NCBI GenBank assembly: GCA_036172665.1
Contig: CM069880.1
Location: 3,288,501 to 3,352,500, forward strand
DNA length: 64,000 bases
Direction: 5' to 3'
DNA from: Prosopocoilus inquinatus
Taxonomy: Eukaryota; Arthropoda; Insecta; Coleoptera; Lucanidae
Part shown: positions 48 through 60,346 of the stretch, piece by piece
Numbering within the stretch: position 1 is the stretch's first letter
Layout: each line of letters starts with the position of its first letter
Notes under the pieces: generated by a model
Databases searched by the model: none
Seen by the model: only the letters and a program-made list of their open reading frames with translations
What the model was told of the DNA's origin: nothing
Translations under genes and position numbers: made by a program

Positions 48-96
48 CCTGTGATGTATCTAATCGATCCTTACTCATCTATCATGTTATTTGACG

Positions 97-18032: not shown

Positions 18033-18181
18033 AGCTGGAAATAGTTTTAAACGAAACAACACGTATTAGCGTTGTTCCTGTGATGTATCTAATCGATCCT
18101 TTCTCATCTATTATGTTATTTGACGTTTGGATGGACACCAGTAACTCTGATGTGAGATGCGAAGTTCTCGGACGCAGCAGA

Positions 18182-20714: not shown

Positions 20715-23700
20715 AGCTGGAAATAGTTTTAAACGAAACAACACGCATTAGCGTTGTTCCTGTGATGTATCTAATCGATCCTTTCTCATCTATTATGTTA
20801 TTTGACGTTTGGATGGACACCAGTAACTCTGATGTGAGATACGAAGTTCTCGGACGCAGCAGAAGCTGGAAATAGTTTTAAACGAAACAACACGCATTAG
20901 CGTTGTTCCTGTGATGTATCTAATCGATCCTTACTCATCTATCATGTTATTTGGCGTTTCGATGGACTCCAGTAACTTTGATGTGAGATACGACGTTTTC
21001 GGACGCAGCAGAAGCTGGAAATAGTTTTAAACGAAACAACACGCATTAGCGATGTTCCTGTGATGTATCTAATCGATCCTTACTCATCTATCATGTTATT
21101 TTACGTTTGGATGGACTCCAGTAACTCTGATGTGAGATACGACGTTTTCGGACGCAGCAGAAGCTGGAAATAGTTTTGAAGGAAACAAGACGCATTAGCG
21201 ATGTTCCTGTGATGTATCTAATCGATCCTTACTCATCTATCATGTTATTTTACGTTTGGATGGACTCCAGTAACTCTGATGTGAGATACAAAGTTTTTGG
21301 ACGCAGCAGAAGCTGGAAATAGTTTTGAACGAAACAACACGTATTAGCGTTGTTCCTGTGATGTATCTAATCGATCCTTACTCATCTCTCATGTTATTTG
21401 ACGTTTGGACGGACTCCAGTAACTCTGATGTGAGATAAAAAGTTCTCGGACGCAGCAGAAGCTGGAAATAGTTTTGAACGAAACAACACGTATTAGCGTT
21501 GTTCCTGTGATGTATCTAAACGATCCTTATTTATCTATCATGTTATTTGACGTTTGGATGGACTCCAGTAAGTCTGATGTGAGATACAAAGTTTTTGGAC
21601 GCAGCAGGAGCTGGAAATAGTTTTAAACGAAACAACACGTATTAGCGTTGTTCCTGTGCTGTATCTAATCGATCCTTACTTATCTATCATGTTATTTGTC
21701 GTTTCGATGGACTCCAGTAACTCTGATGTGAGATACGACGTTTTCGGACGCAGCAGAAGCTGGAATTAGTTTTTAACGAAACAACACGCATTAGCGATGT
21801 TCCTGTGATGTATCTAATAGATACTTACTCATCTATCATGTTATTTTACGTTTGGATGGACTCCAGTAAGTCTGATGTGAGATACAAAGTTTTTGGACGC
21901 AGCAGCAGCTGGAAATAGTTTTAAACGAAACAACACGTATTAGCGTTGTTCCTGTGCTGTATCTAATCGATCCTTACTTATCTATCATGTTATTTGTCGT
22001 TTCGATGGACTCCAGTAACTCTGATGTGAGATACGACGTTTTCGGACGCAGCAGAAGCTGGAAATAGTTTTGAACGAAACAACACGTATTAGCGTTGTTC
22101 CTGTGATGTATCTAATCGATCCTTACTCATCTATCATGTTATTTGGCGTTTCGATGGACTCCAGTAACTTTGATGTGAGATACGACGTTTTCGGACGCAG
22201 CAGAAGCTGGAAATAGTTTTAAACGAAACAACACGCATTAGCGATGTTCCTGTGATGTATCTAATCGATCCTTACTCATCTATCATGTTATTTTACGTTT
22301 GGATGGACTCCAGTAACTCTGATGTGAGATACGACGTTTTCGGACGCAGCAGAAGCTGGAAATAGTTTTAAACGAAACAACACGCATTAGCGATGTTCCT
22401 GTGATGTATCTAATCGATCCTTACTCATCTATCATGTTATTTTACGTTTGGATGGACTCCAGTAACTCTGATGTGAGATACAAAGTTTTTGGACGCAGCA
22501 GAAGCTGGAAATAGTTTTGAAGGAAACAACACGCATTAGCGTTGTTCCTGTGATGTATCTAATCGATCCTTACTCATCTATCATGTTATTTGGCGTTTCG
22601 ATGGACTCCAGTAACTTTGATGTGAGATACGAAGTTCTCGGACGCAGCTGAAGCTGGAAATAGTTTTAAACGAAACAACACGTATTAGCGTTGTTCCTGT
22701 GATGTATCTAATCGATCCTTACTTAGCTACTATGTTATTTGACGTTTCGATGGACTCCAGTAACTCTAATGTGAGATACGAAATTTTCGGACGCAGCAGC
22801 AGCTGGAAATAGTTTTAAACGAAACAACACATATTAGCGTTGTTCCTGTGATGTATCTAATCGATCCTTACTCATCTCTCATGTTATTTGATGTTTGGAC
22901 GGACTCCAGTAACTCTGATGTGAGATACAAAGTTCTCGGACGCAGCAGAAGCTGGAAATAGTTTTGAACGAAACAACACGTATTAGCGTTGTTCCTGTGA
23001 TGTATCTAAACGATCCTTATTTATCTAACATGTTATTTGACGTTTCGATGGACTCCAGTAACTCTGATGTGAGATACGAAGTTCTCGGACGCAGCAGAAG
23101 CTGGAAATAGTTTTAAACGAAACAACACGTATTAGCGTTGTTCCTGTGATGTATCTAATCGATCCTTACTTAGCTACTATGTTATTTGACGTTTCGATGG
23201 ACTCCAGTAACTCTAATGTGAGATACGAAATTTTCGGACGCAGCAGCAGCTGGAAATAGTTTTAAACGAAACAACACATATTAGCGTTGTTCCTGTGATG
23301 TATCTAATCGATCCTTACTCATCTCTCATGTTATTTGATGTTTGGACGGACTCCAGTAACTCTGATGTGAGATACAAAGTTCTCGGACGCAGCAGAAGCT
23401 GGAAATAGTTTTGAACGAAACAACACGTATTAGCGTTGTTCCTGTGATGTATCTAAACGATCCTTATTTATCTAACATGTTATTTGACGTTTCGATGGAC
23501 TCCAGTAACTCTGATGTGAGATACGAAGTTCTCGGACGCAGCAGAAGCTGGAAATAGTTTTAAACGAAACAACACGCATTAGCGTTGTTCCTGTGATGTA
23601 TCTAATCGATCCTTACTCATCTATCATGTTATTTGGCGTTTCGATGGACTCCAGTAACTTTGATGTGAGATACGACGTTTTCGGACGCAGCAGAAGCTGG

Positions 23701-25035
23701 AAATAGTTTTAAACGAAACAACACGCATTAGCGATGTTCCTGTGATGTATCTAATCGATCCTTACTCATCTATCATGTTATTTTACGTTTGGATGGACTC
23801 CAGTAACTCTGATGTGAGATACGACGTTTTCGGACGCAGCAGAAGCTGGAAATAGTTTTAAACGAAACAACACGCATTAGCGATGTTCCTGTGATGTATC
23901 TAATCGATCCTTACTCATCTATCATGTTATTTTACGTTTGGATGGACTCCAGTAACTCTGATGTGAGATACAAAGTTTTTGGACGCAGCAGAAGCTGGAA
24001 ATAGTTTTGAAGGAAACAACACGCATTAGCGTTGTTCCTGTGATGTATCTAAACGATCCTTATTTATCTAACATGTTATTTGACGTTTCGATGGACTCCA
24101 GTAACTTTGATGTGAGATACGACGTTTTCGGACGCAGCAGAAGCTGGAAATAGTTTTGAAGGAAACAACACGCATTAGCGATGTTCCTGTGATGTATCTA
24201 ATCGATCCTTACTCATCTATCATGTTATTTGGCGTTTCGATGGACTCCAGTAACTTTGATGTGAGATACGAAGTTCTCGGACGCAGCTGAAGCTGGAAAT
24301 AGTTTTAAACGAAACAACACGTATTAGCGTTGTTCCTGTGATGTATCTAATCGATCCTTACTTAGCTACTATGTTATTTGACGTTTCGATGGACTCCAGT
24401 AACTCTAATGTGAGATACGAAATTTTCGGACGCAGCAGCAGCTGGAAATAGTTTTAAACGAAACAACACATATTAGCGTTGTTCCTGTGCTGTATCTAAT
24501 CGATCCTTACTTATCTATCATGTTATTTGTCGTTTCGATGGACTCCAGTAACTCTGATGTGAGACACGACGTTTTCGGACGCAGCAGAAGCTGGAATTAG
24601 TTTTAAACGAAACAACACGTATTAGCGTTGTTCCTGTGATGTATCTAATCGATCCTTACTCATCTATCATGTTATTTGGCGTTTCGATGGACTCCAGTAA
24701 CTCTGATGTGAGATACAAAGTTCTCGGACGCAGCAGAAGCTGGAAATAGTTTTGAACCAAACAACACGTATTAGCGTTGTTCCTGTGATGTATCTAAACG
24801 ATCCTTATTTATCTAACATGTTATTTGACGTTTGGATGGACTCCAGTAAGTCTGATGTGAGATACAAAGTTTTTGGACGCAGCAGGAGCTGGAAATAGTT
24901 TTAAACGAAACAACACGTATTAGCGTTGTTCCTGTGCTGTATCTAATCGATCCTTACTTATCTATCATGTTATTTGACGTTTCGATGGACTCCAGTAACT
25001 CTGATGTGAGATACGACGTTTTCGGACGCAGCAGA
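20715..25035 (+). repeat. 31-mer higher-order repeat, copy alpha (29 monomers)
   Basis: This is the first recognisable copy of the 31-monomer repeat, 4321 bp. Numbering the canonical repeat 1-31, it has positions 1-4 (G A B B2) followed directly by 7-31 (K E F2 H F2 A2 B B2 A' C D2 E2 C D2 E2 A B B2 E3 A'' C F3 X E4 F). The C and D1 monomers at positions 5-6 are absent. Its G lacks the GATGCG marker and its third monomer is plain B, not Bk. Its B2 still has the AACAAGACGC marker of the 13-mer family, at about 21185. It is therefore an early or recombinant form joining the 13-mer family to the 31-mer family. Confidence 0.88.
22652..23545 (+). repeat. Tandem trimer core [C D2 E2] x2 (copy alpha)
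   Basis: A 447-bp trimer occurs twice in direct succession: C (CTTAGCTAC), D2 (ACATATTAG, CATCTCTC, TTGATG, GGACGG) and E2 (CTAAACG, TTTCG, GAAGTTCTCGG). The same doubled trimer sits at 27270-28163, 31740-32633, 36060-36953, 40530-41423, 46341-47234, 50960-51853 and 55579-56472, once in each 31-mer-equivalent. The trimer duplication therefore occurred before the 31-mer spread. The TTGATG variant appears only in these D2 monomers. Confidence 0.9.
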
Positions 25036-26376
25036 AGCTGGAAATAGTTTTAAACGAAACAACACGTATTAGCGTTGTTCCTGTGATGTATCTAATCGAT
25101 CCTTTCTCATCTATTATGTTATTTGACGTTTGGATGGACACCAGTAACTCTGATGTGAGATGCGAAGTTCTCGGACGCAGCAGAAGCTGGAAATAGTTTT
25201 AAACGAAACAACACGCATTAGCGTTGTTCCTGTGATGTATCTAATCGATCCTTACTCATCTATCATGTTATTTGGCGTTTCGATGGACTCCAGTAACTTT
25301 GATGTGAGATACGACGTTTTCGGACGCAGCAGAAGCTGGAAATAGTTTTAAACGAAACAACACGCATTAGCGATGTTCCTGTGATGTATCTAATCGATCC
25401 TTACTCATCTATCATGTTATTTTAAGTTTGGATGGACTCCAGTAACTCTGATGTGAGATACGACGTTTTCGGACGCAGCAGAAGCTGGAAATAGTTTTGA
25501 AGGAAACAACACGCATTAGCGATGTTCCTGTGATGTATCTAATCGATCCTTACTCATCTATCATGTTATTTTACGTTTGGATGGACTCCAGTAACTCTGA
25601 TGTGAGATACAAAGTTTTTGGACGCAGCAGAAGCTGGAAATAGTTTTGAACGAAACAACACGTATTAGCGTTGTTCCTGTGATGTATCTAATCGATCCTT
25701 ACTTAGCTACTATGTTATTTGACGTTTCGATGGACTCCAGTAACTCTAATGTGAGATACGAAATTTTCGGACGCAGCAGCAGCTGGAAATAGTTTTAAAC
25801 GAAACAACACATATTAGCGTTGTTCCTGTGATGTATCTAATCGATCCTTACTCATCTATCATGTTATTTGGCGTTTCGATGGACTCCAGTAACTTTGATG
25901 TGAGATACGAAGTTCTCGGACGCAGCTGAAGCTGGAAATAGTTTTAAACGAAACAACACGTATTAGCGTTGTTCCTGTGATGTATCTAATCGATCCTTAC
26001 TCATCTCTCATGTTATTTGACGTTTGGACGGACTCCAGTAACTCTGATGTGAGATAAAAAGTTCTCGGACGCAGCAGAAGCTGGAAATAGTTTTGAACGA
26101 AACAACACGTATTAGCGTTGTTCCTGTGATGTATCTAAACGATCCTTATTTATCTATCATGTTATTTGACGTTTGGATGGACTCCAGTAAGTCTGATGTG
26201 AGATACAAAGTTTTTGGACGCAGCAGGAGCTGGAAATAGTTTTAAACGAAACAACACGTATTAGCGTTGTTCCTGTGCTGTATCTAATCGATCCTTACTT
26301 ATCTATCATGTTATTTGTCGTTTCGATGGACTCCAGTAACTCTGATGTGAGATACGACGTTTTCGGACGCAGCAGA

Positions 26377-26524
26377 AGCTGGAATTAGTTTTTAACGAAA
26401 CAACACGCATTAGCGATGTTCCTGTGATGTATCTAATAGATACTTACTCATCTATCATGTTATTTTACGTTTGGATGGACTCCAGTAAGTCTGATGTGAG
26501 ATAAAAGTTTTTGGACGCAGCAGC
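26377..26524 (+). repeat. 148-bp H monomer with 1-bp deletion
   Basis: This type-H monomer reads GAGATAAAAGTTT at about 26498-26510 where its relatives at 21758, 30846, 45447 and 50066 read GAGATACAAAGTTT, so one C is missing. All downstream monomer starts shift by -1. It is one of only two departures from the 149-bp period that I found. Confidence 0.92.
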
Positions 26525-29206
26525 AGCTGGAAATAGTTTTAAACGAAACAACACGTATTAGCGTTGTTCCTGTGCTGTATCTAATCGATCCTTACTTATC
26601 TATCATGTTATTTGTCGTTTCGATGGACTCCAGTAACTCTGATGTGAGATACGACGTTTTCGGACGCAGCAGAAGCTGGAAATAGTTTTGAACGAAACAA
26701 CACGTATTAGCGTTGTTCCTGTGATGTATCTAATCGATCCTTACTCATCTATCATGTTATTTGGCGTTTCGATGGACTCCAGTAACTTTGATGTGAGATA
26801 CGACGTTTTCGGACGCAGCAGAAGCTGGAAATAGTTTTAAACGAAACAACACGCATTAGCGATGTTCCTGTGATGTATCTAATCGATCCTTACTCATCTA
26901 TCATGTTATTTTACGTTTGGATGGACTCCAGTAACTCTGATGTGAGATACGACGTTTTCGGACGCAGCAGAAGCTGGAAATAGTTTTAAACGAAACAACA
27001 CGCATTAGCGATGTTCCTGTGATGTATCTAATCGATCCTTACTCATCTATCATGTTATTTTACGTTTGGATGGACTCCAGTAACTCTGATGTGAGATACA
27101 AAGTTTTTGGACGCAGCAGAAGCTGGAAATAGTTTTGAAGGAAACAACACGCATTAGCGTTGTTCCTGTGATGTATCTAATCGATCCTTACTCATCTATC
27201 ATGTTATTTGGCGTTTCGATGGACTCCAGTAACTTTGATGTGAGATACGAAGTTCTCGGACGCAGCTGAAGCTGGAAATAGTTTTAAACGAAACAACACG
27301 TATTAGCGTTGTTCCTGTGATGTATCTAATCGATCCTTACTTAGCTACTATGTTATTTGACGTTTCGATGGACTCCAGTAACTCTAATGTGAGATACGAA
27401 ATTTTCGGACGCAGCAGCAGCTGGAAATAGTTTTAAACGAAACAACACATATTAGCGTTGTTCCTGTGATGTATCTAATCGATCCTTACTCATCTCTCAT
27501 GTTATTTGATGTTTGGACGGACTCCAGTAACTCTGATGTGAGATACAAAGTTCTCGGACGCAGCAGAAGCTGGAAATAGTTTTGAACGAAACAACACGTA
27601 TTAGCGTTGTTCCTGTGATGTATCTAAACGATCCTTATTTATCTAACATGTTATTTGACGTTTCGATGGACTCCAGTAACTCTGATGTGAGATACGAAGT
27701 TCTCGGACGCAGCAGAAGCTGGAAATAGTTTTAAACGAAACAACACGTATTAGCGTTGTTCCTGTGATGTATCTAATCGATCCTTACTTAGCTACTATGT
27801 TATTTGACGTTTCGATGGACTCCAGTAACTCTAATGTGAGATACGAAATTTTCGGACGCAGCAGCAGCTGGAAATAGTTTTAAACGAAACAACACATATT
27901 AGCGTTGTTCCTGTGATGTATCTAATCGATCCTTACTCATCTCTCATGTTATTTGATGTTTGGACGGACTCCAGTAACTCTGATGTGAGATACAAAGTTC
28001 TCGGACGCAGCAGAAGCTGGAAATAGTTTTGAACGAAACAACACGTATTAGCGTTGTTCCTGTGATGTATCTAAACGATCCTTATTTATCTAACATGTTA
28101 TTTGACGTTTCGATGGACTCCAGTAACTCTGATGTGAGATACGAAGTTCTCGGACGCAGCAGAAGCTGGAAATAGTTTTAAACGAAACAACACGCATTAG
28201 CGTTGTTCCTGTGATGTATCTAATCGATCCTTACTCATCTATCATGTTATTTGGCGTTTCGATGGACTCCAGTAACTTTGATGTGAGATACGACGTTTTC
28301 GGACGCAGCAGAAGCTGGAAATAGTTTTAAACGAAACAACACGCATTAGCGATGTTCCTGTGATGTATCTAATCGATCCTTACTCATCTATCATGTTATT
28401 TTACGTTTGGATGGACTCCAGTAACTCTGATGTGAGATACGACGTTTTCGGACGCAGCAGAAGCTGGAAATAGTTTTAAACGAAACAACACGCATTAGCG
28501 ATGTTCCTGTGATGTATCTAATCGATCCTTACTCATCTATCATGTTATTTTACGTTTGGATGGACTCCAGTAACTCTGATGTGAGATACAAAGTTTTTGG
28601 ACGCAGCAGAAGCTGGAAATAGTTTTGAAGGAAACAACACGCATTAGCGTTGTTCCTGTGATGTATCTAAACGATCCTTATTTATCTAACATGTTATTTG
28701 ACGTTTCGATGGACTCCAGTAACTTTGATGTGAGATACGACGTTTTCGGACGCAGCAGAAGCTGGAAATAGTTTTGAAGGAAACAACACGCATTAGCGAT
28801 GTTCCTGTGATGTATCTAATCGATCCTTACTCATCTATCATGTTATTTGGCGTTTCGATGGACTCCAGTAACTTTGATGTGAGATACGAAGTTCTCGGAC
28901 GCAGCTGAAGCTGGAAATAGTTTTAAACGAAACAACACGTATTAGCGTTGTTCCTGTGATGTATCTAATCGATCCTTACTTAGCTACTATGTTATTTGAC
29001 GTTTCGATGGACTCCAGTAACTCTAATGTGAGATACGAAATTTTCGGACGCAGCAGCAGCTGGAAATAGTTTTAAACGAAACAACACATATTAGCGTTGT
29101 TCCTGTGCTGTATCTAATCGATCCTTACTTATCTATCATGTTATTTGTCGTTTCGATGGACTCCAGTAACTCTGATGTGAGACACGACGTTTTCGGACGC
29201 AGCAGA

Positions 29207-29355
29207 AGCTGGAATTAGTTTTAAACGAAACAACACGTATTAGCGTTGTTCCTGTGATGTATCTAATCGATCCTTACTCATCTATCATGTTATTTTACGT
29301 TTGGATGGACTCCAGTAACTCTGATGTGAGATACGACGTTTTCGGACGCAGCAGA
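29207..29355 (+). repeat. X/B hybrid monomer opening the inserted run
   Basis: It starts GGAATTAG with ACGTATTAGCGTTG (type X), then switches to TTTTACGTTTGG with GACGTTTTCGG (type B). The next monomer (29356-29504) starts as B and ends CAAAGTTTTTGG with CAGGA, an E-type end. Both are duplicated in copy gamma (37997 and 38146). They mark the left breakpoint of the nine-monomer insertion. Confidence 0.82.
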
Positions 29356-29504
29356 AGCTGGAAATAGTTTTAAACGAAACAACACGCATTAGCGATGTTC
29401 CTGTGATGTATCTAATCGATCCTTACTCATCTATCATGTTATTTTACGTTTGGATGGACTCCAGTAACTCTGATGTGAGATACAAAGTTTTTGGACGCAG
29501 CAGG

Positions 29505-30547
29505 AGCTGGAAATAGTTTTAAACGAAACAACACGTATTAGCGTTGTTCCTGTGCTGTATCTAATCGATCCTTACTTATCTATCATGTTATTTGTCGTTT
29601 CGATGGACTCCAGTAACTCTGATGTGAGATACGACGTTTTCGGACGCAGCAGAAGCTGGAATTAGTTTTTAACGAAACAACACGCATTAGCGATGTTCCT
29701 GTGATGTATCTAATCGATACTTACTCATCTATCATGTTATTTTACGTTTGGATGGACTCCAGTAAGTCTGATGTGAGATACGAAGTTCTCGGACGCAGCT
29801 GAAGCTGGAAATAGTTTTAAACGAAACAACACGTATTAGCGTTGTTCCTGTGATGTATCTAATCGATCCTTACTTAGCTACTATGTTATTTGACGTTTCG
29901 ATGGACTCCAGTAACTCTAATGTGAGATACGAAATTTTCGGACGCAGCAGCAGCTGGAAATAGTTTTAAACGAAACAACACATATTAGCGTTGTTCCTGT
30001 GATGTATCTAAACGATCCTTATTTATCTAACATGTTATTTGACGTTTGGATGGACTCCAGTAAGTCTGATGTGAGATACAAAGTTTTTGGACGCAGCAGG
30101 AGCTGGAAATAGTTTTAAACGAAACAACACGTATTAGCGTTGTTCCTGTGCTGTATCTAATCGATCCTTACTTATCTATCATGTTATTTGTCGTTTCGAT
30201 GGACTCCAGTAACTCTGATGTGAGATACGACGTTTTCGGACGCAGCAGAAGCTGGAATTAGTTTTTAACGAAACAACACGCATTAGCGATGTTCCTGTGA
30301 TGTATCTAATCGATACTTACTCATCTATCATGTTATTTTACGTTTGGATGGACTCCAGTAAGTCTGATGTGAGATACAAAGTTTTTGGACGCAGCAGCAG
30401 CTGGAAATAGTTTTAAACGAAACAACACGTATTAGCGTTGTTCCTGTGCTGTATCTAATCGATCCTTACTTATCTATCATGTTATTTGTCGTTTCGATGG
30501 ACTCCAGTAACTCTGATGTGAGATAAAAAGTTCTCGGACGCAGCAGA
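29505..30547 (+). repeat. Seven-monomer cassette F2 H' C E F2 H F2 (copy beta)
   Basis: A 1043-bp cassette present in copies beta (29505-30547), gamma (38295-39337), delta (44106-45148) and eta (59155-60197) and absent from alpha, epsilon and zeta. Its signatures are an H monomer with AATCGATAC that ends GCAGCTGAA, and an E monomer that begins with ACATATTAG. Its flanks differ among copies: B/E on the left in beta and gamma, K/E in delta and eta. In beta and gamma the final F2 changes to a K-type end (GATAAAAAGTTCTCGG). Presence or absence of this cassette explains most of the length differences among copies. Confidence 0.85.
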
Positions 30548-33500: not shown

Positions 33501-34123
33501 AGATACGAAATTTTCGGACGCAGCAGCAGCTGGAAATAGTTTTAAACGAAACAACACATATTAGCGTTGTTCCTGTGCTGTATCTAATCGATCCTTACTT
33601 ATCTATCATGTTATTTGTCGTTTCGATGGACTCCAGTAACTCTGATGTGAGACACGACGTTTTCGGACGCAGCAGAAGCTGGAATTAGTTTTAAACGAAA
33701 CAACACGTATTAGCGTTGTTCCTGTGATGTATCTAATCGATCCTTACTCATCTATCATGTTATTTGGCGTTTCGATGGACTCCAGTAACTCTGATGTGAG
33801 ATACAAAGTTCTCGGACGCAGCAGAAGCTGGAAATAGTTTTGAACCAAACAACACGTATTAGCGTTGTTCCTGTGATGTATCTAAACGATCCTTATTTAT
33901 CTAACATGTTATTTGACGTTTGGATGGACTCCAGTAAGTCTGATGTGAGATACAAAGTTTTTGGACGCAGCAGGAGCTGGAAATAGTTTTAAACGAAACA
34001 ACACGGATTAGCGTTGTTCCTGTGCTGTATCTAATCGATCCTTACTTATCTATCATGTTATTTGACGTTTCGATGGACTCCAGTAACTCTGATGTGAGAT
34101 ACGACGTTTTCGGACGCAGCAGA

Positions 34124-34272
34124 AGCTGGAAATAGTTTTAAACGAAACAACACGTATTAGCGTTGTTCCTGTGATGTATCTAATCGATCCTTTCTCATCT
34201 ATTATGTTATTTTAAGTTTGGATGGACTCCAGTAACTCTGATGTGAGATACGACGTTTTCGGACGCAGCAGA
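34124..34272 (+). repeat. G/Bk hybrid monomer at duplication junction
   Basis: The first half has G diagnostics (ACGTATTAGCGTTG, TTTCTCATCTATTATG) and the second half Bk diagnostics (TTTTAAGTTTGG, ACTCCAG, GACGTTTTCGG). The switch lies between 34204 and about 34212, within the ATGTTATTT stretch that G and Bk share. It joins the end of copy beta to the interior of copy gamma and removes two monomers relative to a G*-A-Bk junction. This is the visible product of an unequal crossover. Confidence 0.9.
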
Positions 34273-35166
34273 AGCTGGAAATAGTTTTGAAGGAAACAAC
34301 ACGCATTAGCGATGTTCCTGTGATGTATCTAATCGATCCTTACTCATCTATCATGTTATTTTACGTTTGGATGGACTCCAGTAACTCTGATGTGAGATAC
34401 AAAGTTTTTGGACGCAGCAGAAGCTGGAAATAGTTTTGAACGAAACAACACGTATTAGCGTTGTTCCTGTGATGTATCTAATCGATCCTTACTTAGCTAC
34501 TATGTTATTTGACGTTTCGATGGACTCCAGTAACTCTAATGTGAGATACGAAATTTTCGGACGCAGCAGCAGCTGGAAATAGTTTTAAACGAAACAACAC
34601 ATATTAGCGTTGTTCCTGTGATGTATCTAATCGATCCTTACTCATCTATCATGTTATTTGGCGTTTCGATGGACTCCAGTAACTTTGATGTGAGATACGA
34701 AGTTCTCGGACGCAGCTGAAGCTGGAAATAGTTTTAAACGAAACAACACGTATTAGCGTTGTTCCTGTGATGTATCTAATCGATCCTTACTCATCTCTCA
34801 TGTTATTTGACGTTTGGACGGACTCCAGTAACTCTGATGTGAGATAAAAAGTTCTCGGACGCAGCAGAAGCTGGAAATAGTTTTGAACGAAACAACACGT
34901 ATTAGCGTTGTTCCTGTGATGTATCTAAACGATCCTTATTTATCTATCATGTTATTTGACGTTTGGATGGACTCCAGTAAGTCTGATGTGAGATACAAAG
35001 TTTTTGGACGCAGCAGGAGCTGGAAATAGTTTTAAACGAAACAACACGTATTAGCGTTGTTCCTGTGCTGTATCTAATCGATCCTTACTTATCTATCATG
35101 TTATTTGTCGTTTCGATGGACTCCAGTAACTCTGATGTGAGATACGACGTTTTCGGACGCAGCAGA

Positions 35167-35314
35167 AGCTGGAATTAGTTTTTAACGAAACAACACGCAT
35201 TAGCGATGTTCCTGTGATGTATCTAATAGATACTTACTCATCTATCATGTTATTTTACGTTTGGATGGACTCCAGTAAGTCTGATGTGAGATAAAAGTTT
35301 TTGGACGCAGCAGC
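35167..35314 (+). repeat. 148-bp H monomer, second copy of the same deletion
   Basis: Carries the identical missing C (GAGATAAAAGTTT near 35288-35300), exactly 8790 bp after the first. Because the deletion is shared and not recurrent, it dates the 8.8-kb duplication as younger than the deletion. Downstream monomer phase is -2. Confidence 0.92.
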
Positions 35315-48724: not shown

Positions 48725-51700
48725 AGCTGGAAATAGTTTTAAACGAAACAACACGTATTAGCGTTGTTCCTGTGATGTATCTAATCGATCCTTTCTCATC
48801 TATTATGTTATTTGACGTTTGGATGGACACCAGTAACTCTGATGTGAGATGCGAAGTTCTCGGACGCAGCAGAAGCTGGAAATAGTTTTAAACGAAACAA
48901 CACGCATTAGCGTTGTTCCTGTGATGTATCTAATCGATCCTTACTCATCTATCATGTTATTTGGCGTTTCGATGGACTCCAGTAACTTTGATGTGAGATA
49001 CGACGTTTTCGGACGCAGCAGAAGCTGGAAATAGTTTTAAACGAAACAACACGCATTAGCGATGTTCCTGTGATGTATCTAATCGATCCTTACTCATCTA
49101 TCATGTTATTTTAAGTTTGGATGGACTCCAGTAACTCTGATGTGAGATACGACGTTTTCGGACGCAGCAGAAGCTGGAAATAGTTTTGAAGGAAACAACA
49201 CGCATTAGCGATGTTCCTGTGATGTATCTAATCGATCCTTACTCATCTATCATGTTATTTTACGTTTGGATGGACTCCAGTAACTCTGATGTGAGATACA
49301 AAGTTTTTGGACGCAGCAGAAGCTGGAAATAGTTTTGAACGAAACAACACGTATTAGCGTTGTTCCTGTGATGTATCTAATCGATCCTTACTTAGCTACT
49401 ATGTTATTTGACGTTTCGATGGACTCCAGTAACTCTAATGTGAGATACGAAATTTTCGGACGCAGCAGCAGCTGGAAATAGTTTTAAACGAAACAACACA
49501 TATTAGCGTTGTTCCTGTGATGTATCTAATCGATCCTTACTCATCTATCATGTTATTTGGCGTTTCGATGGACTCCAGTAACTTTGATGTGAGATACGAA
49601 GTTCTCGGACGCAGCTGAAGCTGGAAATAGTTTTAAACGAAACAACACGTATTAGCGTTGTTCCTGTGATGTATCTAATCGATCCTTACTCATCTCTCAT
49701 GTTATTTGACGTTTGGACGGACTCCAGTAACTCTGATGTGAGATAAAAAGTTCTCGGACGCAGCAGAAGCTGGAAATAGTTTTGAACGAAACAACACGTA
49801 TTAGCGTTGTTCCTGTGATGTATCTAAACGATCCTTATTTATCTATCATGTTATTTGACGTTTGGATGGACTCCAGTAAGTCTGATGTGAGATACAAAGT
49901 TTTTGGACGCAGCAGGAGCTGGAAATAGTTTTAAACGAAACAACACGTATTAGCGTTGTTCCTGTGCTGTATCTAATCGATCCTTACTTATCTATCATGT
50001 TATTTGTCGTTTCGATGGACTCCAGTAACTCTGATGTGAGATACGACGTTTTCGGACGCAGCAGAAGCTGGAATTAGTTTTTAACGAAACAACACGCATT
50101 AGCGATGTTCCTGTGATGTATCTAATAGATACTTACTCATCTATCATGTTATTTTACGTTTGGATGGACTCCAGTAAGTCTGATGTGAGATACAAAGTTT
50201 TTGGACGCAGCAGCAGCTGGAAATAGTTTTAAACGAAACAACACATATTAGCGTTGTTCCTGTGCTGTATCTAATCGATCCTTACTTATCTATCATGTTA
50301 TTTGTCGTTTCGATGGACTCCAGTAACTCTGATGTGAGATACGACGTTTTCGGACGCAGCAGAAGCTGGAAATAGTTTTGAACGAAACAACACGTATTAG
50401 CGTTGTTCCTGTGATGTATCTAATCGATCCTTACTCATCTATCATGTTATTTGGCGTTTCGATGGACTCCAGTAACTTTGATGTGAGATACGACGTTTTC
50501 GGACGCAGCAGAAGCTGGAAATAGTTTTAAACGAAACAACACGCATTAGCGATGTTCCTGTGATGTATCTAATCGATCCTTACTCATCTATCATGTTATT
50601 TTACGTTTGGATGGACTCCAGTAACTCTGATGTGAGATACGACGTTTTCGGACGCAGCAGAAGCTGGAAATAGTTTTAAACGAAACAACACGCATTAGCG
50701 ATGTTCCTGTGATGTATCTAATCGATCCTTACTCATCTATCATGTTATTTTACGTTTGGATGGACTCCAGTAACTCTGATGTGAGATACAAAGTTTTTGG
50801 ACGCAGCAGAAGCTGGAAATAGTTTTGAAGGAAACAACACGCATTAGCGTTGTTCCTGTGATGTATCTAATCGATCCTTACTCATCTATCATGTTATTTG
50901 GCGTTTCGATGGACTCCAGTAACTTTGATGTGAGATACGAAGTTCTCGGACGCAGCTGAAGCTGGAAATAGTTTTAAACGAAACAACACGTATTAGCGTT
51001 GTTCCTGTGATGTATCTAATCGATCCTTACTTAGCTACTATGTTATTTGACGTTTCGATGGACTCCAGTAACTCTAATGTGAGATACGAAATTTTCGGAC
51101 GCAGCAGCAGCTGGAAATAGTTTTAAACGAAACAACACATATTAGCGTTGTTCCTGTGATGTATCTAATCGATCCTTACTCATCTCTCATGTTATTTGAT
51201 GTTTGGACGGACTCCAGTAACTCTGATGTGAGATACAAAGTTCTCGGACGCAGCAGAAGCTGGAAATAGTTTTGAACGAAACAACACGTATTAGCGTTGT
51301 TCCTGTGATGTATCTAAACGATCCTTATTTATCTAACATGTTATTTGACGTTTCGATGGACTCCAGTAACTCTGATGTGAGATACGAAGTTCTCGGACGC
51401 AGCAGAAGCTGGAAATAGTTTTAAACGAAACAACACGTATTAGCGTTGTTCCTGTGATGTATCTAATCGATCCTTACTTAGCTACTATGTTATTTGACGT
51501 TTCGATGGACTCCAGTAACTCTAATGTGAGATACGAAATTTTCGGACGCAGCAGCAGCTGGAAATAGTTTTAAACGAAACAACACATATTAGCGTTGTTC
51601 CTGTGATGTATCTAATCGATCCTTACTCATCTCTCATGTTATTTGATGTTTGGACGGACTCCAGTAACTCTGATGTGAGATACAAAGTTCTCGGACGCAG

Positions 51701-53343
51701 CAGAAGCTGGAAATAGTTTTGAACGAAACAACACGTATTAGCGTTGTTCCTGTGATGTATCTAAACGATCCTTATTTATCTAACATGTTATTTGACGTTT
51801 CGATGGACTCCAGTAACTCTGATGTGAGATACGAAGTTCTCGGACGCAGCAGAAGCTGGAAATAGTTTTAAACGAAACAACACGCATTAGCGTTGTTCCT
51901 GTGATGTATCTAATCGATCCTTACTCATCTATCATGTTATTTGGCGTTTCGATGGACTCCAGTAACTTTGATGTGAGATACGACGTTTTCGGACGCAGCA
52001 GAAGCTGGAAATAGTTTTAAACGAAACAACACGCATTAGCGATGTTCCTGTGATGTATCTAATCGATCCTTACTCATCTATCATGTTATTTTACGTTTGG
52101 ATGGACTCCAGTAACTCTGATGTGAGATACGACGTTTTCGGACGCAGCAGAAGCTGGAAATAGTTTTAAACGAAACAACACGCATTAGCGATGTTCCTGT
52201 GATGTATCTAATCGATCCTTACTCATCTATCATGTTATTTTACGTTTGGATGGACTCCAGTAACTCTGATGTGAGATACAAAGTTTTTGGACGCAGCAGA
52301 AGCTGGAAATAGTTTTGAAGGAAACAACACGCATTAGCGTTGTTCCTGTGATGTATCTAAACGATCCTTATTTATCTAACATGTTATTTGACGTTTCGAT
52401 GGACTCCAGTAACTTTGATGTGAGATACGACGTTTTCGGACGCAGCAGAAGCTGGAAATAGTTTTGAAGGAAACAACACGCATTAGCGATGTTCCTGTGA
52501 TGTATCTAATCGATCCTTACTCATCTATCATGTTATTTGGCGTTTCGATGGACTCCAGTAACTTTGATGTGAGATACGAAGTTCTCGGACGCAGCTGAAG
52601 CTGGAAATAGTTTTAAACGAAACAACACGTATTAGCGTTGTTCCTGTGATGTATCTAATCGATCCTTACTTAGCTACTATGTTATTTGACGTTTCGATGG
52701 ACTCCAGTAACTCTAATGTGAGATACGAAATTTTCGGACGCAGCAGCAGCTGGAAATAGTTTTAAACGAAACAACACATATTAGCGTTGTTCCTGTGCTG
52801 TATCTAATCGATCCTTACTTATCTATCATGTTATTTGTCGTTTCGATGGACTCCAGTAACTCTGATGTGAGACACGACGTTTTCGGACGCAGCAGAAGCT
52901 GGAATTAGTTTTAAACGAAACAACACGTATTAGCGTTGTTCCTGTGATGTATCTAATCGATCCTTACTCATCTATCATGTTATTTGGCGTTTCGATGGAC
53001 TCCAGTAACTCTGATGTGAGATACAAAGTTCTCGGACGCAGCAGAAGCTGGAAATAGTTTTGAACCAAACAACACGTATTAGCGTTGTTCCTGTGATGTA
53101 TCTAAACGATCCTTATTTATCTAACATTTTATTTGACGTTTGGATGGACTCCAGTAAGTCTGATGTGAGATACAAAGTTTTTGGACGCAGCAGGAGCTGG
53201 AAATAGTTTTAAACGAAACAACACGTATTAGCGTTGTTCCTGTGCTGTATCTAATCGATCCTTACTTATCTATCATGTTATTTGACGTTTCGATGGACTC
53301 CAGTAACTCTGATGTGAGATACGACGTTTTCGGACGCAGCAGA
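48725..53343 (+). repeat. 31-monomer higher-order repeat, copy epsilon (4619 bp)
   Basis: This is the clearest complete canonical unit. The order is G* A Bk B2 C D1 K E F2 H F2 A2 B B2 A' C D2 E2 C D2 E2 A B B2 E3 A'' C F3 X E4 F. Positions 16-18 and 19-21 are a tandem [C D2 E2] duplication. Position 11 starts ACATATTAG (near 50246), where copies alpha to delta have ACGTATTAG. Position 30 reads AACATTTTATTT (near 53125), where other copies read AACATGTTATTT. Both variants are shared with copy zeta only. The unit is 31 x 149 = 4619 bp and the next one starts exactly there. Confidence 0.93.
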
Positions 53344-56300
53344 AGCTGGAAATAGTTTTAAACGAAACAACACGTATTAGCGTTGTTCCTGTGATGTATC
53401 TAATCGATCCTTTCTCATCTATTATGTTATTTGACGTTTGGATGGACACCAGTAACTCTGATGTGAGATGCGAAGTTCTCGGACGCAGCAGAAGCTGGAA
53501 ATAGTTTTAAACGAAACAACACGCATTAGCGTTGTTCCTGTGATGTATCTAATCGATCCTTACTCATCTATCATGTTATTTGGCGTTTCGATGGACTCCA
53601 GTAACTTTGATGTGAGATACGACGTTTTCGGACGCAGCAGAAGCTGGAAATAGTTTTAAACGAAACAACACGCATTAGCGATGTTCCTGTGATGTATCTA
53701 ATCGATCCTTACTCATCTATCATGTTATTTTAAGTTTGGATGGACTCCAGTAACTCTGATGTGAGATACGACGTTTTCGGACGCAGCAGAAGCTGGAAAT
53801 AGTTTTGAAGGAAACAACACGCATTAGCGATGTTCCTGTGATGTATCTAATCGATCCTTACTCATCTATCATGTTATTTTACGTTTGGATGGACTCCAGT
53901 AACTCTGATGTGAGATACAAAGTTTTTGGACGCAGCAGAAGCTGGAAATAGTTTTGAACGAAACAACACGTATTAGCGTTGTTCCTGTGATGTATCTAAT
54001 CGATCCTTACTTAGCTACTATGTTATTTGACGTTTCGATGGACTCCAGTAACTCTAATGTGAGATACGAAATTTTCGGACGCAGCAGCAGCTGGAAATAG
54101 TTTTAAACGAAACAACACATATTAGCGTTGTTCCTGTGATGTATCTAATCGATCCTTACTCATCTATCATGTTATTTGGCGTTTCGATGGACTCCAGTAA
54201 CTTTGATGTGAGATACGAAGTTCTCGGACGCAGCTGAAGCTGGAAATAGTTTTAAACGAAACAACACGTATTAGCGTTGTTCCTGTGATGTATCTAATCG
54301 ATCCTTACTTAGCTACTATGTTATTTGACGTTTCGATGGACTCCAGTAACTCTAATGTGAGATACGAAATTTTCGGACGCAGCAGCAGCTGGAAATAGTT
54401 TTAAACGAAACAACACATATTAGCGTTGTTCCTGTGATGTATCTAATCGATCCTTACTCATCTCTCATGTTATTTGACGTTTGGATGGACTCCAGTAAGT
54501 CTGATGTGAGATACAAAGTTTTTGGACGCAGCAGGAGCTGGAAATAGTTTTAAACGAAACAACACGTATTAGCGTTGTTCCTGTGCTGTATCTAATCGAT
54601 CCTTACTTATCTATCATGTTATTTGTCGTTTCGATGGACTCCAGTAACTCTGATGTGAGATACGACGTTTTCGGACGCAGCAGAAGCTGGAATTAGTTTT
54701 TAACGAAACAACACGCATTAGCGATGTTCCTGTGATGTATCTAATAGATACTTACTCATCTATCATGTTATTTTACGTTTGGATGGACTCCAGTAAGTCT
54801 GATGTGAGATACAAAGTTTTTGGACGCAGCAGCAGCTGGAAATAGTTTTAAACGAAACAACACATATTAGCGTTGTTCCTGTGCTGTATCTAATCGATCC
54901 TTACTTATCTATCATGTTATTTGTCGTTTCGATGGACTCCAGTAACTCTGATGTGAGATACGACGTTTTCGGACGCAGCAGAAGCTGGAAATAGTTTTGA
55001 ACGAAACAACACGTATTAGCGTTGTTCCTGTGATGTATCTAATCGATCCTTACTCATCTATCATGTTATTTGGCGTTTCGATGGACTCCAGTAACTTTGA
55101 TGTGAGATACGACGTTTTCGGACGCAGCAGAAGCTGGAAATAGTTTTAAACGAAACAACACGCATTAGCGATGTTCCTGTGATGTATCTAATCGATCCTT
55201 ACTCATCTATCATGTTATTTTACGTTTGGATGGACTCCAGTAACTCTGATGTGAGATACGACGTTTTCGGACGCAGCAGAAGCTGGAAATAGTTTTAAAC
55301 GAAACAACACGCATTAGCGATGTTCCTGTGATGTATCTAATCGATCCTTACTCATCTATCATGTTATTTTACGTTTGGATGGACTCCAGTAACTCTGATG
55401 TGAGATACAAAGTTTTTGGACGCAGCAGAAGCTGGAAATAGTTTTGAAGGAAACAACACGCATTAGCGTTGTTCCTGTGATGTATCTAATCGATCCTTAC
55501 TCATCTATCATGTTATTTGGCGTTTCGATGGACTCCAGTAACTTTGATGTGAGATACGAAGTTCTCGGACGCAGCTGAAGCTGGAAATAGTTTTAAACGA
55601 AACAACACGTATTAGCGTTGTTCCTGTGATGTATCTAATCGATCCTTACTTAGCTACTATGTTATTTGACGTTTCGATGGACTCCAGTAACTCTAATGTG
55701 AGATACGAAATTTTCGGACGCAGCAGCAGCTGGAAATAGTTTTAAACGAAACAACACATATTAGCGTTGTTCCTGTGATGTATCTAATCGATCCTTACTC
55801 ATCTCTCATGTTATTTGATGTTTGGACGGACTCCAGTAACTCTGATGTGAGATACAAAGTTCTCGGACGCAGCAGAAGCTGGAAATAGTTTTGAACGAAA
55901 CAACACGTATTAGCGTTGTTCCTGTGATGTATCTAAACGATCCTTATTTATCTAACATGTTATTTGACGTTTCGATGGACTCCAGTAACTCTGATGTGAG
56001 ATACGAAGTTCTCGGACGCAGCAGAAGCTGGAAATAGTTTTAAACGAAACAACACGTATTAGCGTTGTTCCTGTGATGTATCTAATCGATCCTTACTTAG
56101 CTACTATGTTATTTGACGTTTCGATGGACTCCAGTAACTCTAATGTGAGATACGAAATTTTCGGACGCAGCAGCAGCTGGAAATAGTTTTAAACGAAACA
56201 ACACATATTAGCGTTGTTCCTGTGATGTATCTAATCGATCCTTACTCATCTCTCATGTTATTTGATGTTTGGACGGACTCCAGTAACTCTGATGTGAGAT

Positions 56301-57962
56301 ACAAAGTTCTCGGACGCAGCAGAAGCTGGAAATAGTTTTGAACGAAACAACACGTATTAGCGTTGTTCCTGTGATGTATCTAAACGATCCTTATTTATCT
56401 AACATGTTATTTGACGTTTCGATGGACTCCAGTAACTCTGATGTGAGATACGAAGTTCTCGGACGCAGCAGAAGCTGGAAATAGTTTTAAACGAAACAAC
56501 ACGCATTAGCGTTGTTCCTGTGATGTATCTAATCGATCCTTACTCATCTATCATGTTATTTGGCGTTTCGATGGACTCCAGTAACTTTGATGTGAGATAC
56601 GACGTTTTCGGACGCAGCAGAAGCTGGAAATAGTTTTAAACGAAACAACACGCATTAGCGATGTTCCTGTGATGTATCTAATCGATCCTTACTCATCTAT
56701 CATGTTATTTTACGTTTGGATGGACTCCAGTAACTCTGATGTGAGATACGACGTTTTCGGACGCAGCAGAAGCTGGAAATAGTTTTAAACGAAACAACAC
56801 GCATTAGCGATGTTCCTGTGATGTATCTAATCGATCCTTACTCATCTATCATGTTATTTTACGTTTGGATGGACTCCAGTAACTCTGATGTGAGATACAA
56901 AGTTTTTGGACGCAGCAGAAGCTGGAAATAGTTTTGAAGGAAACAACACGCATTAGCGTTGTTCCTGTGATGTATCTAAACGATCCTTATTTATCTAACA
57001 TGTTATTTGACGTTTCGATGGACTCCAGTAACTTTGATGTGAGATACGACGTTTTCGGACGCAGCAGAAGCTGGAAATAGTTTTGAAGGAAACAACACGC
57101 ATTAGCGATGTTCCTGTGATGTATCTAATCGATCCTTACTCATCTATCATGTTATTTGGCGTTTCGATGGACTCCAGTAACTTTGATGTGAGATACGAAG
57201 TTCTCGGACGCAGCTGAAGCTGGAAATAGTTTTAAACGAAACAACACGTATTAGCGTTGTTCCTGTGATGTATCTAATCGATCCTTACTTAGCTACTATG
57301 TTATTTGACGTTTCGATGGACTCCAGTAACTCTAATGTGAGATACGAAATTTTCGGACGCAGCAGCAGCTGGAAATAGTTTTAAACGAAACAACACATAT
57401 TAGCGTTGTTCCTGTGCTGTATCTAATCGATCCTTACTTATCTATCATGTTATTTGTCGTTTCGATGGACTCCAGTAACTCTGATGTGAGACACGACGTT
57501 TTCGGACGCAGCAGAAGCTGGAATTAGTTTTAAACGAAACAACACGTATTAGCGTTGTTCCTGTGATGTATCTAATCGATCCTTACTCATCTATCATGTT
57601 ATTTGGCGTTTCGATGGACTCCAGTAACTCTGATGTGAGATACAAAGTTCTCGGACGCAGCAGAAGCTGGAAATAGTTTTGAACCAAACAACACGTATTA
57701 GCGTTGTTCCTGTGATGTATCTAAACGATCCTTATTTATCTAACATTTTATTTGACGTTTGGATGGACTCCAGTAAGTCTGATGTGAGATACAAAGTTTT
57801 TGGACGCAGCAGGAGCTGGAAATAGTTTTAAACGAAACAACACGTATTAGCGTTGTTCCTGTGCTGTATCTAATCGATCCTTACTTATCTATCATGTTAT
57901 TTGACGTTTCGATGGACTCCAGTAACTCTGATGTGAGATACGACGTTTTCGGACGCAGCAGA
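53344..57962 (+). repeat. 31-monomer higher-order repeat, copy zeta (4619 bp)
   Basis: Same length and order as copy epsilon except for positions 7-8. These are C (54238) and a K/E hybrid (54387) where epsilon has K and E. The C-K/E arrangement matches copy delta and the last partial copy, while the ACATATTAG and AACATTTT variants match epsilon. Zeta is thus a mosaic of two sources, consistent with unequal exchange or gene conversion. Confidence 0.92.
54387..54535 (+). repeat. D/K/E hybrid monomer (copy zeta)
   Basis: Starts ACATATTAG with CATCTCTC (D2/K type) and ends GGATGG, AAGTCTG, CAAAGTTTTTGG, CAGGA (type E). The equivalents at 43957 and 59006 switch later: they keep GGACGG and AACTCTG before the CAAAGTTTTTGG end. 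The switch point therefore differs between copies, which indicates either separate exchanges or later conversion. Confidence 0.78.
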
Positions 57963-60346
57963 AGCTGGAAATAGTTTTAAACGAAACAACACGTATTAGC
58001 GTTGTTCCTGTGATGTATCTAATCGATCCTTTCTCATCTATTATGTTATTTGACGTTTGGATGGACACCAGTAACTCTGATGTGAGATGCGAAGTTCTCG
58101 GACGCAGCAGAAGCTGGAAATAGTTTTAAACGAAACAACACGCATTAGCGTTGTTCCTGTGATGTATCTAATCGATCCTTACTCATCTATCATGTTATTT
58201 GGCGTTTCGATGGACTCCAGTAACTTTGATGTGAGATACGACGTTTTCGGACGCAGCAGAAGCTGGAAATAGTTTTAAACGAAACAACACGCATTAGCGA
58301 TGTTCCTGTGATGTATCTAATCGATCCTTACTTATCTATCATGTTATTTTAAGTTTGGATGGACTCCAGTAACTCTGATGTGAGATACGACGTTTTCGGA
58401 CGCAGCAGAAGCTGGAAATAGTTTTGAAGGAAACAACACGCATTAGCGATGTTCCTGTGATGTATCTAATCGATCCTTACTCATCTATCATGTTATTTTA
58501 CGTTTGGATGGACTCCAGTAACTCTGATGTGAGATACAAAGTTTTTGGACGCAGCAGAAGCTGGAAATAGTTTTGAACGAAACAACACGTATTAGCGTTG
58601 TTCCTGTGATGTATCTAATCGATCCTTACTTAGCTACTATGTTATTTGACGTTTCGATGGACTCCAGTAACTCTAATGTGAGATACGAAATTTTCGGACG
58701 CAGCAGCAGCTGGAAATAGTTTTAAACGAAACAACACATATTAGCGTTGTTCCTGTGATGTATCTAATCGATCCTTACTCATCTATCATGTTATTTGGCG
58801 TTTCGATGGACTCCAGTAACTTTGATGTGAGATACGAAGTTCTCGGACGCAGCTGAAGCTGGAAATAGTTTTAAACGAAACAACACGTATTAGCGTTGTT
58901 CCTGTGATGTATCTAATCGATCCTTACTTAGCTACTATGTTATTTGACGTTTCGATGGACTCCAGTAACTCTAATGTGAGATACGAAATTTTCGGACGCA
59001 GCAGCAGCTGGAAATAGTTTTAAACGAAACAACACATATTAGCGTTGTTCCTGTGATGTATCTAATCGATCCTTACTCATCTCTCATGTTATTTGACGTT
59101 TGGACGGACTCCAGTAACTCTGATGTGAGATACAAAGTTTTTGGACGCAGCAGGAGCTGGAAATAGTTTTAAACGAAACAACACGTATTAGCGTTGTTCC
59201 TGTGCTGTATCTAATCGATCCTTACTTATCTATCATGTTATTTGTCGTTTCGATGGACTCCAGTAACTCTGATGTGAGATACGACGTTTTCGGACGCAGC
59301 AGAAGCTGGAATTAGTTTTTAACGAAACAACACGCATTAGCGATGTTCCTGAGATGTATCTAATCGATACTTACTCATCTATCATGTTATTTTACGTTTG
59401 GATGGACTCCAGTAAGTCTGATGTGAGATACGAAGTTCTCGGACGCAGCTGAAGCTGGAAATAGTTTTAAACGAAACAACACGTATTAGCGTTGTTCCTG
59501 TGATGTATCTAATCGATCCTTACTTAGCTACTATGTTATTTGACGTTTCGATGGACTCCAGTAACTCTAATGTGAGATACGAAATTTTCGGACGCAGCAG
59601 CAGCTGGAAATAGTTTTAAACGAAACAACACATATTAGCGTTGTTCCTGTGATGTATCTAAACGATCCTTATTTATCTAACATGTTATTTGACGTTTGGA
59701 TGGACTCCAGTAAGTCTGATGTGAGATACAAAGTTTTTGGACGCAGCAGGAGCTGGAAATAGTTTTAAACGAAACAACACGTATTAGCGTTGTTCCTGTG
59801 CTGTATCTAATCGATCCTTACTTATCTATCATGTTATTTGTCGTTTCGATGGACTCCAGTAACTCTGATGTGAGATACGACGTTTTCGGACGCAGCAGAA
59901 GCTGGAATTAGTTTTTAACGAAACAACACGCATTAGCGATGTTCCTGTGATGTATCTAATCGATACTTACTCATCTATCATGTTATTTTACGTTTGGATG
60001 GACTCCAGTAAGTCTGATGTGAGATACAAAGTTTTTGGACGCAGCAGCAGCTGGAAATAGTTTTAAACGAAACAACACGTATTAGCGTTGTTCCTGTGCT
60101 GTATCTAATCGATCCTTACTTATCTATCATGTTATTTGTCGTTTCGATGGACTCCAGTAACTCTGATGTGAGATACGACGTTTTCGGACTCAGCAGAAGC
60201 TGGAATTAGTTTTAAACGAAACAACACGTATTAGCGTTGTTCCTGTGATGTATCTAATCGATCCTTACTCATCTATCATGTTATTTGGCGTTTCGATGGA
60301 CTCCAGTAACTCTGATGTGAGATAAAAAGTTCTCGGAGGCAGCAGA
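57963..60346 (+). repeat. 31-mer family, partial copy eta
   Basis: Sixteen monomers: G* A Bk B2 C D1 C K/E F2 H' C E F2 H F2 and an X/K hybrid. The first fifteen match copy delta (42914-45148) at an offset of 15049 bp (101 x 149), including the private GGACTCAGC at 60186. Private changes here are CTTATCTATC in Bk near 58331 and CCTGAGATG near 59347. At 60198-60346 the sequence switches to the CTCGGAGGCAGC family otherwise seen only at 6.7 and 8.5 kb, which ends the young domain. Confidence 0.88.

What the first reader, a model, noticed from the sequence alone, without database searches (positions are those of the whole stretch)
20715..60346. 31-monomer higher-order repeat (4619 bp) with copies of 29, 61, 59, 39, 31, 31 monomers
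Seen directly: copy starts at 20715, 25036, 34124, 42914, 48725, 53344 and 57963, each set by the same G-A-B or G/Bk junction and the same downstream order. Two copies are exactly 31 x 149 bp; the rest differ by whole numbers of monomers. A 31-monomer unit is long compared with well-known satellite higher-order repeats, and its copy-to-copy length variation is unusually readable.
Basis: seen in the sequence. Interest (0 to 1): 0.8.

Follow-up and report, generated by a model that had tools for sequence, protein, structure and literature searches.

The report
Long higher-order repeat in 149-bp satellite
This is a stretch of ordinary eukaryote-type satellite DNA, a 149-base unit repeated head to tail, in which a block of about 31 units was recently copied several times; it is a well-preserved record of how such arrays rearrange rather than a new kind of element.

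Summary
The repeat is real. The window is one 149-bp satellite array of 429 full monomers; lag 31 is its best monomer lag. The interpretation needs correcting. The stable unit is a 20-monomer core (2,980 bp; eight copies, 0-2 differences) joined by linkers of 9-19 monomers; core spacing is 31, 30, 29, 30, 39, 31, 31. The two exact 31-mers differ only at two monomers, QG versus BV. I read these as two different one-monomer deletions from a 32-mer, an inference partly resting on a reconstructed parent monomer. Monomer types are often mosaics: 18 of 43 are exact single-crossover hybrids of two others, against mean 2.4 (maximum 10) when site order is permuted. In-register homologous exchange inside monomers best explains types and length variants. 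The block looks young: 5 private substitutions in 266 monomers, 28 in 139 in the left flank. Longer units and hybrid monomers are published in primates, so this is a new member of a known kind. Host, location and function are unknown.

The parts
1..64000 (+). 149-bp tandem satellite array, all head to tail, no interruption
   Evidence: TRF 429.5 copies; 430 anchors on the + strand, all spacings 149 except two of 148
5..20715 (+). older left flank of the same satellite (monomers 0-138), with its own local repeats at lags 36, 13 and 44 monomers
   Evidence: 28 private substitutions in 139 monomers; runs at lags 36, 13, 44
21312..60198 (+). young higher-order block (monomers 143-403)
   Evidence: monomers 143 and 403 are nearer to block monomers 150-383 than to left-flank monomers 0-133; 404-405 are 2 mismatches from any of monomers 150-383; F, C and L of 139-142 carry flank-type alleles
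21610..24589 (+). core copy 1, 20 monomers ANADCEJBHKBHKDCEOJBA
26229..29207 (+). core copy 2 (carries the 1-bp deletion)
30698..33677 (+). core copy 3
35019..37997 (+). core copy 4 (same 1-bp deletion as core 2)
39488..42467 (+). core copy 5
45299..48278 (+). core copy 6 (one private substitution)
49918..52897 (+). core copy 7 (shares G30A in its third monomer with core 8)
54537..57516 (+). core copy 8
25484..42914 (+). longest near-identical duplication: 58 monomers at 25484-34124 and again at 34274-42914, one mismatch; the most recent-looking event by divergence
   Evidence: run of 58 at lag 59 from monomer 171, 1 mismatch, 99.988%
49918..59155 (+). tandem duplication of a 31-monomer unit (core + MGAFDCLBIBV) at 49918-54536 and again at 54537-59155
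   Evidence: 32-monomer run at lag 31 from monomer 335, 3 mismatches, 99.937%
34125..34273 (+). hybrid monomer n = F x C; removes two monomers (61-mer to 59-mer)
   Evidence: 1 mismatch to the F x C type consensus, crossover in 79-88; the mismatching site (91A) is the allele of the block's own C monomers; context test p=0.014
45150..45298 (+). hybrid monomer o = M x G; removes one monomer in the 39-mer
   Evidence: 0 mismatches, crossover in 96-111; context test p=0.010
49620..49768 (+). hybrid monomer Q = B x W' (also at 21312, 25931, 34721); removes one monomer
   Evidence: W' is inferred; 5' parent rests on site 30 and on the missing B; context test not significant, p=0.44
54388..54536 (+). 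hybrid monomer V = W' x G (also at 43958, 59007); removes one monomer
   Evidence: crossover in 112-126 with inferred W', 1 mismatch with observed W or H; context test with W x G p=0.061; in the other context the best pair was W x E, p=0.021
30400..30548 (+). hybrid monomer d = A x Q (also at 39190), joins ARBSAN to the G before the core
   Evidence: 0 mismatches, crossover in 99-126; context test p=0.001
29208..29356 (+). hybrid monomer c = M x C (also at 37998)
   Evidence: 0 mismatches, crossover in 39-88; one-flank context test p=0.02, with o instead of M as the 5' parent
29953..30101 (+). hybrid monomer S = W'-like x G (also at 38743, 44554, 59603); 5' parent ambiguous (W', W, V, I or H)
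   Evidence: 0 mismatches for each of these 5' parents, crossover in 30-59
60348..64000 (+). right flank, older-type satellite again
   Evidence: 4 private substitutions in the last 24 monomers

Best explanation
This is a non-coding satellite array, most likely centromeric or pericentromeric DNA of a eukaryote, carrying a young higher-order repeat. In-register homologous exchange between misaligned monomers did two things. Exchanges between near neighbours removed monomers, often 1-3 at a time (n, o, Q, V, p) and sometimes more (d, c, R, q), and left hybrid monomers at the joints. Larger events (unequal sister exchange or break-induced replication) duplicated blocks of about 30-60 monomers (4.5-9 kb). 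The 20-monomer core survived nearly unchanged in eight copies while the linkers between cores were reshaped, so copy lengths differ by whole monomers. The two exact 31-monomer copies are best read as two separate one-monomer deletions from a 32-monomer unit with order ...BI-B-W'-G-A.... Shown: the periodicity, the core and linker map, the mosaic types, several hybrid joints and the contrast in private variants. Inferred: the 32-mer ancestor, the exchange pathway, the eukaryotic host and the centromeric setting.
For: Strict 149-bp register. Eight cores with 0-2 differences in 2,980 bp. Spacings 31, 30, 29, 30, 39, 31, 31. 18 of 43 types are exact two-parent single-crossover hybrids, against mean 2.4 and maximum 10 in 500 site-order permutations, and mean 0.25 and maximum 3 in 200 column shuffles; this holds at six cyclic shifts (13-19 hybrids against permuted maxima of 7-9). 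Of 60 context tests predicting the hybrid parents from flanking order, 21 have p<0.05 and 9 have p<0.01; they are not independent. Hybrids n, o, d, c and p fit with 0-1 mismatch. Copies 5 and 6 differ only at QG/BV. V and Q agree exactly over positions 72-111, and W in the left flank differs from the inferred parent only at sites 100 and 101. Private substitutions: 28 in 139 left-flank monomers against 5 in monomers 139-404, Fisher p=3e-9 per base. No coding signal: 21 of 102 minor alleles are synonymous, against 98 of 447 possible substitutions.
Against: A looser context test gave p<0.05 for only 5 of 22 rare-type contexts, with 9 more not computable. Q's parent is not recovered by the 3-monomer context test (p=0.44), and for V the W x G pair reaches only p=0.061. 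W' was built in part from Q and V themselves, so their perfect fit is partly by construction, and the order W-G-A-N is seen nowhere in the window: the two W-G pairs in the left flank are followed by X. Hybrid and parent can often be exchanged, so 18 hybrid types are not 18 events. Copies 5 and 6 share a core variant but have different linkers, so exchange between linker forms could have made one from the other. Lags 190 and 159 beat 31 inside the block. Duplication turns private variants into shared ones, so the low private count measures recent copying, not age in years. No host genome is held, so location, CENP-A binding and copy number beyond the window are unknown. Assembly error cannot be excluded, since 58 monomers (8.6 kb) at lag 59 differ by one base.
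Confidence: 0.82

Rival explanations
1. The true unit is a fixed 31-mer, and 29, 61, 59 and 39 are simple losses or gains from it, with Q-G as the original form and B-V as a derived one.
For: Lag 31 is the best single lag over the window. The Q-form occurs at 4 places and the V-form at 3.
Against: Core spacing varies over 29, 30, 31 and 39, and only 3 of 7 spacings are 31. Turning Q-G into B-V needs both a gain and a loss, whereas B-W-G, seen in the left flank (once as B-W-G and once as l-W-G, l being a B-like type), gives each form by one deletion.
Confidence: 0.2
2. Assembly artefact: a repeat-graph assembler duplicated or collapsed parts of the array, so copy number and order are not biological.
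For: Copies 2 and 3 share 58 monomers with one mismatch, and eight cores have at most 2 differences; such arrays are hard to assemble (general knowledge).
Against: Only one indel variant appears against 102 minor substitution alleles, so base accuracy seems high. Several joints fall inside monomers as hybrids with crossovers at different places. Some copies carry their own variants and linkers.
Confidence: 0.1
3. Gene conversion without crossover copied variant tracts between monomers and made the mosaic types, while block duplication is a separate process.
For: Mosaic types are common throughout the array, and conversion would leave the array length unchanged.
Against: At n and p the hybrid replaces a run of monomers that is seen whole in sister contexts (FDC, FDCL), and at o and d the flanking order also skips monomers; conversion alone does not explain that. 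It may still account for part of the older mosaic.
Confidence: 0.25
4. The array is a tandemly repeated gene or a structured RNA template and not a satellite.
For: The consensus has one frame open for 63 codons.
Against: 149 is not a multiple of 3; minor alleles fall evenly over codon positions (38, 33, 31) and the synonymous share equals chance; no protein candidate shared three 5-residue words with the query; fold z-score +0.58 for one monomer; no Rfam match at gathering score in 20000-30000.
Confidence: 0.02

Closest known systems
Alpha-satellite higher-order repeats of primates, cascading type (Gluncic and co-workers; PMC11050224, passages read)
   Same: Monomers in a fixed order form a unit, unit copies are far more alike than monomers, and some types recur within one unit (here 16 types in 31 positions).
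   Different: Different monomer (149 bp against about 171 bp), no CENP-B-box-like match, monomers only about 7% apart, few unit copies in view, host unknown.
Structural variants and hybrid monomers of human HORs (PMC9549924, section 2.5.2)
   Same: Whole-monomer insertions and deletions, hybrids of two monomers with conserved monomer length.
   Different: Here seven core-to-core intervals in one window use five linker forms; which form is the primary one is not clear.
Very long HOR units: human chr21 52mer (PMC12385485), orangutan chr13 59mer (PMC11276891)
   Same: Dozens of monomers per unit; for the 52mer, two copies 0.2% apart.
   Different: Those are longer; 31 is not a record.
HORs in other animals and plants (PMC4053949: 76 of 171 species with Sanger data)
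   Same: Shows HORs are widespread outside primates.
   Different: Units of three or more monomers were rarely found there, because of read length; this unit is much longer.

Membership tests
Tandem satellite DNA | long head-to-tail array of one non-coding unit | tested here: met
   64 kb, 429.5 copies; no coding signal
Higher-order repeat | multimonomer units more alike than their monomers | tested here: met
   cores 99.93-100% alike; monomers 93.3% alike on average
Willard-type HOR | each monomer type once per unit | tested here: not met
   16 types in 31 positions; A and B four times each in copy 5
Cascading HOR (PMC11050224) | some monomer types repeated inside the canonical unit | tested here: met
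   definition read in passages of the paper; the term was coined for alpha satellite
Alpha satellite | 171-bp monomer; CENP-B box in some monomers | tested here: not met
   period 149; 0 matches to the box core with up to 1 mismatch in 64 kb, 6.6 expected by chance (motif recalled); sequence similarity to alpha satellite was not tested
Functional centromere DNA | occupied by CENP-A / CenH3 nucleosomes | not testable with these tools
   no host genome, no ChIP data
Prokaryotic, phage or plasmid repeat | occurs in those records | tested here: not met
   no blastn match in plasmids (447 bases) or phages (894 bases); one exact 22-mer absent from genome contigs and viral contigs

The most novel reading that the evidence does not exclude
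The B-W'-G step is a preferred site of one-monomer loss: it was removed at least twice (Q, V), perhaps three times (S), at different crossover points, and no intact copy remains in the young block although the left flank keeps W-G. This would point to a sequence-specific fragile or selected-against monomer that sets the unit length.
Probability: 0.12. Interest if true: 0.55.

Novelty: new member of a known kind. Interest (0 to 1): 0.35.

Why it matters
How satellite arrays turn a single monomer into long ordered units is still mainly modelled (my own judgement). Here the exchanges are legible base by base: the hybrid monomers named here place crossovers to within 6-50 bp, and near-identical cores show the block duplications. 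It is a clean test case for models of unequal exchange in a non-alpha satellite, but it follows rules already described for alpha satellite.

Tried and rejected
Host identification failed. No genome is held for the window. A 22-base pattern from the consensus has no exact match in GTDB genomes or viral contigs. Plasmids and phages give nothing at blastn sensitivity. Paper searches with pieces of the monomer gave only matches of 12-mers in what was listed: 53 papers held at least one of six terms, 30 were listed, and in those 30 no 13- to 15-mer was found. One of these was opened and the match is an SSR primer. A second set of six pieces gave 0 papers. Searches for '149 bp' satellite names gave one mitogenome paper and one snake paper with a name ending in -149; neither was opened. 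Searches gave one human-variation paper and none. A poppy centromere paper (PMC11406182) has no '149' in its main text.

Rejected readings: coding repeat, structured RNA, CENP-B-box satellite. A type-by-type context test with one flanking monomer was too weak (p<0.05 in 5 of 22 computed contexts, 9 not computable) and was replaced by one with 2-3 flanking monomers; both are reported. Linkage by distance falls unevenly with distance, within and between monomers; it was not tested against a null and no weight is put on it.
Full report
What is there. The 64-kb window is a single head-to-tail array of a 149-bp unit (TRF: 429.5 copies, 92% matches). An anchor motif occurs 430 times, and all 429 spacings are 149 bp except two of 148 bp. 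The two 148-bp monomers, at 26378 and 35168, carry the same 1-bp deletion and show the same sequence, so they are copies of one event. Mean identity between monomers is 93.3%, and 102 distinct monomer sequences occur. Average-linkage clustering at 2.5 mismatches gives 43 types; the four linkage and cut-off choices tried give 33-55.

Lag 31 is the best of 299 lags over the window. Runs of near-identical monomers reach 58, against at most 7 in 200 shuffles of monomer order. Within monomers 139-404, however, lags 190 and 159 score above lag 31 (0.684, 0.486, 0.374), which already shows that the block is not a plain 31-mer array. Copy boundaries and sizes of 29, 61, 59, 39, 31 and 31 are reproduced, and the four predicted diagonals exist.

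A better description. A 20-monomer core, ANADCEJBHKBHKDCEOJBA in my letters, occurs eight times. The eight cores differ at three sites in all: one private substitution (core 6), one substitution shared by cores 7 and 8, and the 1-bp deletion shared by cores 2 and 4. They are 31, 30, 29, 30, 39, 31 and 31 monomers apart, joined by linkers of 11, 10, 9, 10, 19, 11 and 11 monomers in five forms. The least diverged long duplication is that of 58 monomers at lag 59 (one mismatch); the 31-monomer tandem duplication at 49918-59155 has three mismatches over 32 monomers.

How the lengths arose. Many monomer types behave as mosaics. Of 43 types, 18 are exact single-crossover hybrids of two other types; permuting the order of sites gives 2.4 on average and at most 10 in 500 runs, and shuffling columns gives at most 3 in 200 runs. 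The result holds for six choices of monomer start (13-19 hybrids; permuted maxima 7-9 in 100 runs each). Because hybrid and parent can often be exchanged, this is not a count of events. Several joints inside the linkers are such hybrids. Type n is F joined to C and explains the loss of two monomers between the 61- and 59-mers. Its single mismatch to the type consensus is the allele that the block's own C monomers carry. Type o is M joined to G, and d is A joined to Q. When parents are predicted only from the flanking order, 21 of 60 tests have p<0.05 and 9 have p<0.01; the tests overlap and are not independent. A weaker version gave 5 of 22, with 9 contexts not computable.

The two exact 31-mers. 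Copies 5 and 6 are identical in 29 of 31 monomers; all 19 mismatches lie in Q-G versus B-V. V reads as a W-like monomer joined to G, with crossover at 112-126. Q reads as B joined to the same W-like monomer, with crossover at 30-71. Q and V agree exactly over 72-111, and the W monomers of the left flank differ from the inferred parent only at sites 100 and 101. Since the left flank shows the order B-I-B-W-G once and B-I-l-W-G once, a 32-monomer ancestor that lost one monomer in two different ways is the simplest reading. The caveats are real. The parent is partly built from Q and V. Q's 5' parent rests on one site plus the missing B. The context test for Q is not significant, and for V with W x G it gives p=0.061. 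In the left flank W-G is followed by X, not by A-N. Exchange between linker forms is also evident, because cores 7 and 8 are sisters with different upstream linkers.

Age. Alleles found in a single monomer number 28 in the 139 left-flank monomers, 5 in monomers 139-404 and 4 in the last 24; left flank against block, Fisher p=3e-9 per base. Copying turns private variants into shared ones, so this says that the block was copied more recently than its left flank, not how long ago. Only one indel variant is present against 102 minor substitution alleles, so monomer length is tightly kept.

What it is not. Minor alleles fall evenly over codon positions and are synonymous as often as chance predicts. 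The open frame finds no protein. One monomer folds no better than its shuffles. A 10-kb stretch has no Rfam match at gathering score. No CENP-B-box-like site with up to 1 mismatch is present, where 6.6 are expected by chance. CpG is not depleted in the consensus (9 sites, observed/expected 1.54), which argues against long-term CpG methylation decay but does not name a host. Plasmids and phages give no blastn match, and one exact 22-mer is absent from the GTDB and viral collections. A eukaryotic host is therefore inferred, not shown.

Literature. PMC9549924 (passages and section 2.5.2 read) states that all human HORs have structural variants, usually whole-monomer insertions or deletions, and that hybrid monomers of mostly conserved length are abundant. 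PMC4053949 (passages and one section read) reports HORs in 76 of 171 species with Sanger data. PMC11050224 (passages) defines cascading HORs, which fits the 16 types in 31 positions found here. PMC12385485 (abstract and one section) reports a 52mer, and says that the 33mer annotated in hg38, reported in PMC6718397 (abstract), is absent from the complete assembly. PMC11276891 (abstract) reports a 59mer. PMC11034957 (abstract) supports break-induced replication as a way to change array length. The 31-mer is therefore long but not exceptional, and the mechanism is the expected one.

Verdict. The feature is real, young and unusually readable, and it is a new example of a known kind. Interest is moderate.

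Noticed in passing
26378-26525 and 35168-35315: The only length variant among 429 monomers is one 1-bp deletion, shared by two cores 8,790 bp apart, against 102 minor substitution alleles; monomer length seems tightly kept.
   Followed up: partly
5-20715: The left flank has its own local higher-order order: a 13-monomer unit repeated about 2.5 times (monomers 89-121), a 21-monomer run at lag 36 and a 15-monomer run at lag 44.
   Followed up: no
5-1196: Six of the first eight monomers (types e to j) are singletons, some of them the most diverged of all types (up to 8 mismatches from any common type), as if nearing an edge of the homogenised array.
   Followed up: no
60199-64000: The right flank returns to older monomer types, with hybrids p (F x L, 0 mismatches) and q (O x D, 1 mismatch) in it.
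   Followed up: partly
whole window: CpG observed/expected of the consensus is 1.54 and minor alleles show more transversions (61) than transitions (41), so no sign of methylation-driven decay.
   Followed up: no
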